Assembly (NCBI RefSeq): GCF_902686445.1
Contig: NW_025920104.1
Span: 744,001 to 808,000 of the forward strand
Reading direction: 5' to 3'
Length of the DNA stretch: 64,000 bases
Source of the DNA: Sciurus carolinensis
Taxonomy: Eukaryota > Chordata > Mammalia > Rodentia > Sciuridae
Both the position numbers and the translations under genes were made by a program. Shown here one piece after another: positions 45,546 to 54,567 of the stretch. A model generated the notes under the pieces. That model was not told the origin of the DNA, ran no database searches, and worked only from the letters and a program-made list of their open reading frames with translations. The first letter of the stretch is position 1; each line of letters begins with the position of its first letter.

Positions 45546-46475
45546 TGCGGGGGCGTCCGGAATTCCATCCAGTGCTTGACAAAGATCCTCTGGAGGATGA
45601 TTGCAAAGGCTCATCCTAAAAGGAATTGCCGGATGTTTTGCTCCGGAGCATGGTGTTTTCTCTGCTGTGTTTTTCTGATAATATATTACTCATTTCAGTC
45701 TGAACGGATTGCTTAAGGGGATGAAGGGAATACAACAAAAATTCCAGAAAATATTACCTACAATCTGAAAAACAATGGGTCTTTACCATTAACAAAATTA
45801 AAAATAATTTTGCAACCGTGCAATGAGTCTCTGAAAGCCTCTGGAGAAAATAGTTATAAATCTGCCTTTCTCTCCAACAGGCTGGTTAAATTTTAACAAT
45901 GCTTTTGTTTATGTGTGGTAGTGAGGTAAGAGAATAAGGTTCCAAAACATTCCTTCCTTCCTACAAAAAATATGTCACCCCTATAATAAATGTTGGCACA
46001 CAATATCCATTGGCACCGCTGCCCTCCTGTAACCCTTAACTCAGCAATTTAGATATTAACCAGAGAGACCTAATAGAAATGGTCACATGAGATTACTTGT
46101 CTATCTGTTTAACCACGAGAATATTAAGAATAGTCTTAGGTCACATAGAGTTTAGATATTAAGGAAGTAAATATTGTATTAGCTCATCAATGTAGTTAGA
46201 TATTCTTAAAACAATTGTGATTAGGTAAGGATGATCTGTAAGGTTGTTGTTTTCTGCCTATGCTTTGAAAACTTCTTTAATATTAACCACAAGACTGCCA
46301 TTATAGCCTGAAGAAAACTGTATATAAACCCAGCCCTCCCCAGAATAAAGTGGGATTGATTGCACCAGAACTAGAGTCTGTGTCTTTCATTCTCCATCCA
46401 TCGCCGACGCTGTCTCCCCGCGCCCCGTTTACCGGTGTGGAACCCATGGACTCCTGCTAGGGCTGGACCCCGGCA
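45546..46475 (+). repeat. 5' LTR
   Basis: A 930-bp LTR starts with TGCGGGGGCG and ends with CCCCGGCA. U3 holds two short perfect palindromes near its start (ATCCTCTGGAGGAT at about 45587-45600 and GCTCCGGAGC at about 45640-45649). A TATA box (TATATAAA) is at 46321-46328 and AATAAA is at 46344-46349. The expected transcription start is therefore near 46350, with a short R and a U5 to 46475. The AATAAA lies in U3 just upstream of R, as in other retroviruses with very short R regions. Comparison with the 3' LTR shows isolated changes near 45745, 45902, 45967 and 46123, and a small cluster near 46106. Confidence 0.95.
46321..46328 (+). promoter_or_regulatory. Proviral TATA box
   Basis: TATATAAA sits in U3 about 25-30 bp before the inferred R start. 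The same element is at 54413-54420 in the 3' LTR. Confidence 0.8.
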
Positions 46476-46477
46476 AG

Positions 46478-46495
46478 TGGCGCCCAACGTGGGGC
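46478..46495 (+). other. Primer-binding site, tRNA-Lys1,2 type
   Basis: TGGCGCCCAACGTGGGGC starts two bases after the LTR end. It matches the 3' end of tRNA-Lys1,2, the primer used by Mason-Pfizer-type betaretroviruses. The two spacer bases (AG) agree with integrase trimming. Confidence 0.93.
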
Positions 46496-51740: not shown

Positions 51741-53673
51741 GATGAGACGGTTGCGTCTTGCACAATCATCTGCAACTCGCAACTCAGACCTGCCGACTTG
51801 GGGACAAGTGAAACGTCTGACTGCCGCTGCTGAACACATGGTGAACAGCTCTGGAAAACCTAAAACCCCAGAGGCTTTGTTTTTTGCATTGATTGCTCTC
51901 ATTTCAACTCAGGTACTGTCTATTCATGCTTATGATAATATAGGGAAAGCTTACTGGACCTATTTTCCAAATCCTCCCTTACTGCATCCAACTACTTGGA
52001 GCAGATCTAATATTAAAGTATTTACTAATGAGCCTCAACTACTTGGAGGGATTTCAGATTCTTTAATACCACATAAAATAGCATTTACGATTACATTTCA
52101 TGGAATTACTGAAGAGACACCAATGTGCTTTAGTACAGATAATCTACATGTGCCATTGGGATGTCTCCCTTTAAGTTATAGGACTTACATTACTGATTCT
52201 CCAGGAGAAGAAGACAATGAAAGAGATATATGGTCCCTAGAGATAACCTCACTTGGATATGCTAATTATAATGATACAAATATTTCAGTAGCTTTACCGC
52301 CTCCTTTTAAACCGTGTGACGACTTTAACAGTCGTAAAGACAGCTCTTGGAATCTACTCAATTTAGAAACAGATTTCCCAAAATGGTTTGAATGTGGTTT
52401 TCATCATACTGCACTACAGTTTAAGCCACAAGGCTCTGCTACTACTATTACAGATTATTCTGTGTCTTCTCCTGATTTTGATTATAAACTTTGGTTAAAG
52501 ATAAGACGAAATAAAACAGTACATTTTAATTTTAACCCTTTTCTTACCAATGAGCCTATTCATAGATGGTTTACTCCTGGATGGGTAACACCCATCTATC
52601 GGAGTGACCTTATAAATGGTAAATTCTCTTACTTTCCTGACTTGTATAAACTATTAGCAGCTACTAATGTAGTACTACTACAAAGACCTAAGTTAAGTAA
52701 ACCTAATGACTTTGCAGTACGTGCTTGTATAAATGCTCCTCATGCTATTCTTATGTCTACCATAAATAATTTCAATATTACTAAAAATAAGGAAGCTTAT
52801 AACATTTATTGTCATGATTGTGTTCTTACTAATTGTATTAATTCAACCATGTCTAAAGATTTAAAGGTGTTTTTAATTGTACATCAGCCTAATTATGTTA
52901 TATTGCCAGTCAATCTTACAGAATCTTGGTATGATGATCCAGGTGTTGAAATTTTAAAAACAGTTAATGAACTTTTAAGACCAAAAAGATTTGTTGCAGC
53001 TTTGATCTTAGGAATAACAGCTTTAATCAGTATAATCACTTCCTTAGCTCTCTCGACCACAGCGCTTGTACAGGAAATCCATACCGCTTCACATGTAAAT
53101 GATTTATCTCATAATGTCTCTGTGGCTTTAGCGGCACAAGAACAAATTGATAAAAAATTAGAAACTAGAATTAATGCCCTTGAAGAAGCTATTCTCTTTA
53201 TGGGAAATGAGATTCAAAATATTCAAACTAGAATGACCACTAGATGTCATGCTAATTATAAATGGATTTGTATTACTCCTTTAATGGTTGATAATAATAC
53301 TAATTGGGAACAAGTTAAAACTCACCTTAGAGGAGTTTGGAATAATACTAATATAGCACCAGATATCAATGCTTTACAACTACAAATAAGAATGTTGAGT
53401 CAGGCTCATCTCTCGGTTGTTCCAGCAGATAATTTGGCCTCCCAAATGTTTCATAATATAAAAACAACTATATTTAATAGTACATTCCTAAATACAATAT
53501 TACAATATGGCTTGATTGGAGTATGTATTTTAATTTTAATTCTTTGTCTTCCAGTCGTCCTCCGAGTAATCCTCAGACTAGTCAAGAAAATAAAAATTCA
53601 AGAAGGCCTCTTCACTTTACAAAATAAGAAAGGGGGAGCTGCGGGGGCGTCCGGAATTCCATCCAGTGCTTGA
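51655..53673 (+). CDS. env: Env glycoprotein (MMTV/HML type)
   Basis: A 672-codon open frame encodes the surface/transmembrane precursor. The ATG at 51655 lies inside the pol frame, and a second in-frame ATG at 51742 follows the pol stop. Residues 1-65 form a long basic leader (RRRKNK, KMRRLRL) before the hydrophobic segment ALFFALIALIST (74-85), as in the Rem/Rec-type signal peptides of MMTV and HML-2. SU carries six N-glycosylation sequons (206, 209, 286, 374, 396, 420). The furin-like site RPKR (442-445) is followed by a hydrophobic fusion-peptide-like segment (446-470), a coiled-coil region, and a CX7C loop (Cys531-Cys539). The membrane anchor is at about 617-641, followed by a short basic tail. 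The last 11 codons lie in the 3' LTR. No break is seen, and there is no CX6CC motif. Confidence 0.95.
   Translation: MSPIRRRKNKEYWIPYQSNQTDENGLVFKMRRLRLAQSSATRNSDLPTWGQVKRLTAAAEHMVNSSGKPKTPEALFFALIALISTQVLSIHAYDNIGKAYWTYFPNPPLLHPTTWSRSNIKVFTNEPQLLGGISDSLIPHKIAFTITFHGITEETPMCFSTDNLHVPLGCLPLSYRTYITDSPGEEDNERDIWSLEITSLGYANYNDTNISVALPPPFKPCDDFNSRKDSSWNLLNLETDFPKWFECGFHHTALQFKPQGSATTITDYSVSSPDFDYKLWLKIRRNKTVHFNFNPFLTNEPIHRWFTPGWVTPIYRSDLINGKFSYFPDLYKLLAATNVVLLQRPKLSKPNDFAVRACINAPHAILMSTINNFNITKNKEAYNIYCHDCVLTNCINSTMSKDLKVFLIVHQPNYVILPVNLTESWYDDPGVEILKTVNELLRPKRFVAALILGITALISIITSLALSTTALVQEIHTASHVNDLSHNVSVALAAQEQIDKKLETRINALEEAILFMGNEIQNIQTRMTTRCHANYKWICITPLMVDNNTNWEQVKTHLRGVWNNTNIAPDINALQLQIRMLSQAHLSVVPADNLASQMFHNIKTTIFNSTFLNTILQYGLIGVCILILILCLPVVLRVILRLVKKIKIQEGLFTLQNKKGGAAGASGIPSSA
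53626..53638 (+). other. Polypurine tract
   Basis: AAGAAAGGGGGAG ends two bases before the TG of the 3' LTR. It is the expected primer for plus-strand DNA synthesis. It lies within the env coding frame. Confidence 0.88.
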
Positions 53674-54567
53674 CAAAGATCCTCTGGAGGATGATTGCAA
53701 AGGCTCATCCTAAAAGGAATTGCCGGATGTTTTGCTCCGGAGCATGGTGTTTTCTCTGCTGTGTTTTTCTGATAATATATTACTCATTTCAGTCTGAACG
53801 GATTGCTTAAGGGGATGAAGGGAATACAACAAAAATTCTAGAAAATATTACCTACAATCTGAAAAACAATGGGTCTTTACCATTAACAAAATTAAAAATA
53901 ATTTTGCAACCGTGCAATGAGTCTCTGAAAGCCTCTGGAGAAATAGTTATAAATCTGCCTTTCTCTCCAACAGGCTGGTTAAATTTTAACAATGGTTTTG
54001 TTTATGTGTGGTAGTGAGGTAAGAGAATAAGGTTCCAAAACATTCCTTCCTTCCTACAAAGAATATGTCACCCCTATAATAAATGTTGGCACACAATATC
54101 CATTGGCACCGCTGCCCTCCTGTAACCCTTAACTCAGCAATTTAGATATTAACCAGAGGACCTAATAGAAATGGTCACATGAGATTACTTGTCTATTGCT
54201 TTAACCACGAGAATAATAAGAATAGTCTTAGGTCACATAGAGTTTAGATATTAAGGAAGTAAACTATTGTATTAGCTCATCAATGTAGTTAGATATTCTT
54301 AAAACAATTGTGATTAGGTAAGGATGATCTGTAAGGTTGTTGTTTTCTGCCTATGCTTTGAAACTTCTTTAATATTAACCACAAGACTGCCATTATAGCC
54401 TGAAGAAAACTGTATATAAACCCAGCCCTCCCCAGAATAAAGTGGGATTGATTGCACCAGAACTAGAGTCTGTGTCTTTCATTCTCCATCCATCGCCGAC
54501 GCTGTCTCCCCGCGCCCCGTTTACCGGTGTGGAACCCATGGACTCCTGCTAGGGCTGGACCCCGGCA
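53640..54567 (+). repeat. 3' LTR
   Basis: This 928-bp LTR has the same TG...CA ends as the 5' copy. TATATAAA is at 54413-54420 and AATAAA at 54436-54441, which would polyadenylate the proviral RNA. The first 34 bp encode the env C-terminus. It differs from the 5' LTR by four isolated substitutions, a three-base cluster and four 1-base indels. Confidence 0.95.
54436..54441 (+). terminator. Proviral polyadenylation signal
   Basis: AATAAA lies about 16 bp after the TATA box in the 3' LTR, so cleavage is expected at the end of a short R region a little downstream. Confidence 0.75.

What the first reader, a model, noticed from the sequence alone, without database searches (positions are those of the whole stretch)
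45546..54567. Structurally complete, recent betaretrovirus-like provirus with all four frames open
Seen directly: paired LTRs, primer site, polypurine tract, perfect TSD, and uninterrupted gag, pro, pol and env with their catalytic residues. Most endogenous retroviruses are broken, so a copy this complete is rare and may belong to a young, possibly polymorphic or expressed lineage. It is most similar in layout to MMTV/HML-type viruses, which I infer from domain order and Env type.
Basis: partly seen in the sequence, partly recalled or inferred. Interest (0 to 1): 0.88.

Follow-up and report, generated by a model that had tools for sequence, protein, structure and literature searches.

The report
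Intact MMTV-like provirus, probably squirrel
A complete inherited retrovirus with all four genes still readable sits in what is probably a squirrel genome; it belongs to the mouse mammary tumour virus branch, so it is a well-preserved new member of a known group rather than a new kind of element.

Summary
At 45546-54567 lies a 9,022-bp provirus: LTRs of 930/928 nt (7 substitutions, 4 one-base indels apart), TTTTCT target duplication, tRNA-Lys1,2 primer site, polypurine tract, and open gag, pro, pol and env with expected domains and motifs. The interpretation needs correcting. Pol places it in the MMTV branch (17 of 35 rows, support 100/100), not with type D viruses; against HERV-K only identities could be compared. 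Pro lacks a G-patch, as do its 18 closest listed relatives. No sag-sized ORF lies in the LTRs. Its primer site is Lys1,2, whereas MMTV, horse EqERV-beta1 and bat PvERV-betaB use Lys3. "Recent" is fair (0.6-1.7 My at assumed rates), but the LTRs are more diverged than HERV-K113's. Complete copies are less rare than claimed: one survey found 412 intact, LTR-identical, polymorphic ones in 123 vertebrates; this copy would fail its identical-LTR test. One anomaly: 4 indels in 1.86 kb of LTR, none breaking 7.05 kb of genes. Copy number, polymorphism and expression are untested; the genome search did not complete.

The parts
45540..45545 (.). 5' copy of target-site duplication TTTTCT
45546..46475 (+). 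5' LTR, 930 nt, TG...CA; TATA box at LTR position 776, AATAAA at about 799
46478..46495 (+). primer binding site, tRNA-Lys1,2 type
   Evidence: identical to the Lys1,2 PBS in PMC8775094
46499..46507 (+). candidate major splice donor (GT at 46502)
   Evidence: consensus 6 of 9 only; inference
46628..48460 (+). gag, 610 aa: matrix p10, capsid, two CCHC zinc knuckles, MHR
48343..48392 (+). gag/pro -1 frameshift element: slip site A AAA AAC plus hairpin
   Evidence: Rfam RF01097 29.6 bits and RF01098 22 bits, both below gathering scores
48334..49140 (+). pro frame: dUTPase and aspartic protease (DTG), no G-patch
49128..49134 (+). candidate, non-canonical pro/pol -1 slip site A CAU UUU
   Evidence: only by reading the 28-nt overlap; inference
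49113..51740 (+). pol frame: RT (YMDD), RNase H, integrase
51588..51607 (+). candidate env splice acceptor (exon from 51606)
   Evidence: consensus scan; inference
51655..53673 (+). env, 672 aa: long basic N-terminal region with weak Rec match, SU, RPKR cleavage site, TM with CX7C and anchor; last 34 nt lie in the 3' LTR
53626..53638 (+). polypurine tract
53640..54567 (+). 3' LTR, 928 nt; no sag-sized ORF
54568..54573 (.). 3' copy of target-site duplication TTTTCT

Best explanation
This is an endogenous provirus of the MMTV (type B) branch of the betaretroviruses, in the germ line of a rodent, most likely a squirrel. Shown: complete provirus, open frames, Pol placement, Lys1,2 primer site, no G-patch, no sag. 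Inferred from the family: the U3 promoter drives one full-length RNA, reverse-transcribed from a tRNA-Lys1,2 primer; [quoted passage not shown] a spliced RNA gives Env; the long basic Env signal region serves, as Rem or Rec does, in export of unspliced RNA. It entered the germ line roughly 0.6-1.7 million years ago at assumed rates, or later if part of the LTR difference is gene conversion. It has the coding capacity for particles; whether it is expressed or infectious is unknown.
For: Structure. Integrase 169 of 267 identical to MMTV integrase against 52% for SRV-1 and 67% for Equus asinus P0036. dUTPase 60% to an MMTV NC-dUTPase record over 47% of the query. Pol trees: 17 of 35 rows, 100/100; 22 of 50 rows, SH-aLRT 100, each holding the window, MMTV integrase and P0036, without SRV, prosimian virus or vampire-bat element. 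Beta-type TM. LTR length of the type B kind. Env best named matches in Sciurus carolinensis. CpG observed/expected 0.31 in the provirus, 0.11 in the flanks.
Against: MMTV enters the trees by its integrase alone, and the order inside the branch is unresolved. The Lys1,2 primer site is not that of MMTV, EqERV-beta1 or PvERV-betaB. No PPxY, P(T/S/A)AP or YPxL late motif in Gag by pattern. No canonical pro/pol slip heptamer in the overlap, and no stable fold after it (z -0.24). Named ground-squirrel and marmot Env proteins are only 41% and 36% identical, so the squirrel host rests on Sciurus alone.
Confidence: 0.9

Rival explanations
1. It is an HML (HERV-K-like) element with a Rec gene and Lys1,2 primer site, as the first reader half suggested.
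For: Weak Rec match in Env (20.7 bits, cut-off 27.5); Env TM and part of SU match HERV-K Env chains, the only Env chains found in the PDB; Gag matches HERV-K capsid.
Against: RT 256 of 550 identical to HERV-K RT, lower than to SRV-1 (54%); integrase and dUTPase nearest to MMTV and its kin; tree with MMTV integrase.
Confidence: 0.05
2. The open frames are kept by selection for the host (one or more viral genes co-opted), not merely by youth.
For: 4 one-base indels between the LTRs but none breaking 7,046 nt of genes; under one uniform rate the chance is 0.0019.
Against: Substitutions give no such signal: 0.9-1.4 stops expected, chance of none 0.24-0.40. Host use would not be expected to keep all four genes. 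Four indels are few; LTRs may tolerate indels better, and gene conversion of part of an LTR would do the same: all differences lie within 524 nt of the LTR (chance 0.045).
Confidence: 0.06
3. Assembly artefact: a collapsed or chimeric copy.
For: Repeats of this kind can be collapsed in assembly; the four one-base LTR differences could be sequencing errors.
Against: Perfect duplication at both ends, no N, two non-identical LTRs, no frame broken. Pol P0024 from another data set is 98.4% identical over 750 residues, so a very similar sequence exists elsewhere.
Confidence: 0.04

Closest known systems
Mouse mammary tumour virus (MMTV), type B betaretrovirus
   Same: Integrase 63% identical (169 of 267), dUTPase 60% (47% of query), same Pol branch, long LTR, beta-type TM, same gene order and frames
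   Different: LTR 930 nt with no sag-sized ORF; PBS Lys1,2 rather than Lys3
EqERV-beta1 of the horse (PMC3185775, parts 1-2 of 3 seen) and its Equus asinus relative P0036
   Same: MMTV-related full-length ERV, no sag, LTR difference of about 1%, gag-pro-pol open; P0036 integrase 67%, same branch; that P0036 is the donkey copy of EqERV-beta1 is inference
   Different: LTR 1361 nt, PBS Lys3, one stop in env of the described copy
PvERV-betaB (bat), Group V of Hayward et al. (PMC3621094, passages)
   Same: MMTV-like group with long LTRs and open pro and pol
   Different: LTR 1265 nt, PBS Lys3, broken gag and env; its sequence was not compared
HERV-K (HML-2)
   Same: Betaretrovirus, beta-type TM, weak Rec-like Env N-terminus, TM match
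   Different: RT 47% identical (256 of 550); HERV-K113 LTRs are closer to each other, 99.69%
Gunnison's prairie dog retrovirus (PMC7354474: abstract, passages, one section)
   Same: Betaretrovirus of a squirrel-family host
   Different: Type D, LTR 403 nt, PBS Gln, covalent TM with CX6CC, G-patch present

Membership tests
Betaretrovirus (class II ERV) | gag, pro, pol in three frames with -1 shifts, dUTPase in pro, two zinc knuckles, Lys primer site | tested here: met
   frameshifting itself is not shown
MMTV-like type B branch (Group V of PMC3621094) | Pol groups with MMTV and EqERV, apart from type D | tested here: met
   MMTV by integrase only, EqERV by its Equus asinus relative
MMTV-like type B branch (Group V of PMC3621094) | Long LTR (about 1,200 nt) and beta-type Env | tested here: met
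   LTR 930 nt, shorter than quoted but far above the about 300 of type D; CX7C loop without third cysteine
MMTV-like type B branch (Group V of PMC3621094) | Lys3 primer site, as in the three members looked up | tested here: not met
   Lys1,2 against Lys3 in MMTV, EqERV-beta1, PvERV-betaB; I treat this as a variable trait, though the authors name a primer switch among the marks that part groups
MMTV itself | sag in the 3' LTR | tested here: not met
   longest stop-to-stop stretch in the LTRs 67 codons
HML (HERV-K) | Pol nearest to HERV-K | tested here: not met
   identities only; no labelled HML Pol for a tree
Type D (SRV, M-PMV, GPDRV) | Gamma-type Env with CX6CC, short LTR | tested here: not met
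Invading ERV (ERVi) of Wang and Han 2023 | Identical LTRs | tested here: not met
   7 substitutions, 4 indels; criteria
Invading ERV (ERVi) of Wang and Han 2023 | Insertional polymorphism | not testable with these tools
   no reads of other individuals
Rem/Rec-encoding complex betaretrovirus | Doubly spliced Env-derived RNA export protein and its RNA target | tested here: inconclusive
   Weak Rec match, basic motifs, hydrophobic stretch from residue 72; candidate splice sites by consensus only; no export element among the Rfam matches

The most novel reading that the evidence does not exclude
A separate squirrel lineage of MMTV-branch viruses, with a switched (Lys1,2) primer site and no superantigen, was active recently enough to leave a fully coding provirus whose LTR age is inflated by gene conversion; the insertion may still be polymorphic and expressed in living squirrels.
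Probability: 0.25. Interest if true: 0.62.

Novelty: new member of a known kind. Interest (0 to 1): 0.42.

Why it matters
Fully open relatives of MMTV are few among the papers seen here. One without sag and with another primer site helps to tell which MMTV traits are old in the branch and which are MMTV's own, and it comes from what is probably the squirrel family, in which a tumour-associated betaretrovirus of another type (GPDRV) is already known. The contrast between indels in the LTRs and none in the genes can be tested directly once sister copies are compared.

Tried and rejected
HML assignment: rejected on identities and trees. GPDRV: rejected on LTR length, primer site and Env type. sag: none. 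Other copies in the window: none by blastn of LTR, gag, pro, pol and env pieces at E 1e-3. Viral contig collection: 50 pattern matches, none encoding a relative. Rfam RF01417 'RSV_RNA' at 49234-49522 (73 bits, gathering 105) lies in RT coding sequence and is read as shared coding, not as an RNA element. Folds: after gag/pro z -1.81 (8 of 200 shuffles as good), after pro/pol z -0.24, two control stretches -0.75 and 1.25.

Host genes: of 219 ORFs of 55 aa or more outside provirus and L1, 56 have 80 aa or more; four in the L1 5' region were left out, and the other 52 with two L1 pieces were scanned (one of them, 62290-62577, did not match letter for letter in my recheck of the alignment, but was scanned alone). 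All 52 were then rescanned singly: one L1 RT fragment, one Pre-PUA fragment, one sub-threshold match; no host gene near the provirus.

Papers: eight opened (PMC7354474: abstract, passages, section 3.4; PMC3185775: parts 1 and 2 of 3; PMC10435555: abstract and passages; PMC1224870, PMC3621094, PMC11089739, PMC3758190, PMC8775094: passages); the rest only as listings. No MMTV-like provirus of squirrels was seen in the listings (20 of 58 papers shown; 1 of 1; 1 of 1; 25 of 237; 15 of 33; 3 of 3). PMC10435555 thanks for Sciurus carolinensis data; its supplementary tables could not be read, so sister copies may be listed there.

Full report
What is there. Window 45546-54567 holds a full provirus of 9,022 bp. 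The LTRs (930 and 928 nt) differ by 7 substitutions, three of them adjacent, and 4 one-base indels. The ends are TG...CA, with TTTTCT on both sides. The primer site at 46478-46495 equals the tRNA-Lys1,2 PBS printed in PMC8775094 and has 5 mismatches to the Lys3 PBS. A 13-base purine run ends one base before the 3' LTR. A TATA box and AATAAA sit close together near LTR positions 776-804, which suggests a short R region (inference).

Genes. gag (610 aa), pro (frame 48334-49140), pol (frame 49113-51740) and env (672 aa) are open, with the domains and the motifs. The gag/pro junction has A AAA AAC in the gag frame at 48343; Rfam's two gag/pro frameshift families match at that very spot, both below their gathering scores (29.6 against 43 and 22 against 70 bits). 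The 28-nt pro/pol overlap has no canonical slip heptamer; A CAU UUU at 49128-49134, just before the pro stop, is the best candidate (inference). Relatives of Pro shown often end in FS, FT, FL or DL, so the site may vary between lineages (inference).

Pro. It ends 20 residues after the conserved GRD and has no G-patch. Of the 120 Pro relatives listed, out of 6,681 found, 20 carry a G-patch by precomputed Pfam; none of the 18 nearest (P0144-P0161) does, though some of these may be cut by contig ends. Some betaretroviruses are known to lack it (PMC1224870 passages).

Env. It has a long N-terminal region with basic motifs, a hydrophobic stretch from residue 72, an RPKR cleavage site at residue 442, a two-cysteine CX7C loop and a membrane anchor, and a weak match to HERV-K Rec (20.7 bits, cut-off 27.5). 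By PMC3758190 (passages) this is beta-type TM, as in type B viruses, unlike the gamma-type of type D and of GPDRV.

Placement. A maximum-likelihood Pol tree of 35 rows under a mixture model puts the window with P0024 and P0040 in a 17-row branch that also holds MMTV integrase and Equus asinus P0036, support 100/100, apart from SRV, prosimian virus and the vampire-bat element. A quick 50-row tree gives the same branch with 22 rows. The rows were chosen by hand from the 120 Pol hits listed (of 670 found). Order inside the branch is unresolved. MMTV is present by integrase only, and no labelled HML Pol was available, so the HML question rests on identities: RT 47% to HERV-K (256 of 550) and 54% to SRV-1; integrase 63% to MMTV (169 of 267) and 52% to SRV-1.

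Family traits. PMC3621094 (passages) calls MMTV-like long-LTR elements Group V, with EqERV and PvERV-betaB. MMTV, EqERV-beta1 and PvERV-betaB have a Lys3 PBS; this one has Lys1,2. The authors name a primer switch among the marks that part groups. I treat it as a variant trait of a member, not as a new group.

Age. At assumed rates of 2.2-4.5e-9 per site per year the LTRs give 0.60-1.72 My. At that divergence 0.9-1.4 stops would be expected in 7,046 coding nt, so open frames are not surprising (chance of none 0.24-0.40). The indels are odd: at the LTR rate about 15 would be expected in the genes (about 4 at the lower 95% bound) and none breaks a frame; the chance that all four fall in the LTRs at one uniform rate is 0.0019. 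Gene conversion of part of one LTR, better tolerance of indels in LTRs, and selection are open readings; I favour the first two. CpG observed/expected is 0.31 in the provirus (0.46 in the LTR) and 0.11 in the flanks, which fits a fairly recent arrival.

Host. The best named Env matches at high identity are two Sciurus carolinensis gene models (78% over 214 and 92% over 73 residues); other named matches are lower, for example Tamandua 50%, Callospermophilus 41%, Marmota 36%. The window carries ID-like repeats (name and sequence recalled). Pol P0024, 98.4% over 750 residues, comes from an unnamed data set, so a second very similar sequence exists. I put a squirrel host at about 0.8. The genome search did not complete, so copy number, polymorphism and expression remain open.

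Novelty. Full-length endogenous MMTV relatives are described from horse and bat, and intact proviruses are widespread: 412 in 123 of 2004 vertebrates examined (PMC10435555, abstract and passages). This is a well-preserved new member of a known kind.

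Noticed in passing
21700-27640: Near full-length L1 element with open ORF1 (346 aa) and ORF2 broken into several pieces; its 5' region has two copies of a 250-bp stretch at 90.8% identity (21723-21972, 22184-22431).
   Followed up: partly
11980-15032 and 35038-37865: Older L1 copies, about 66-70% identical to the 21.7-27.6 kb one or to each other.
   Followed up: no
5171-5266: U6 snRNA match above Rfam's gathering score (53.8 against 44 bits), gene or pseudogene not decided.
   Followed up: no
335-586, minus strand: ORF whose first 35 residues match the end of the Pfam Pre-PUA domain (32.4 bits, E 1.4e-7); an exon or a processed pseudogene fragment of a PUA-domain gene.
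   Followed up: partly
49128-49140: The pro/pol overlap lacks a canonical slip heptamer; a pro stop follows A CAU UUU at one codon's distance. Related Pro proteins often end in FS, FT or DL.
   Followed up: partly
46628-48460: Gag shows none of the late-domain patterns PPxY, P(T/S/A)AP, YPxL.
   Followed up: no
45745-46268 against 53839-54360: All 11 LTR differences, four of them one-base indels, lie within 524 nt; both LTR ends are identical.
   Followed up: partly
41740-41880, minus strand: ID-like rodent repeat by recalled consensus words; weaker matches near 7481-7551 and 55442.
   Followed up: partly
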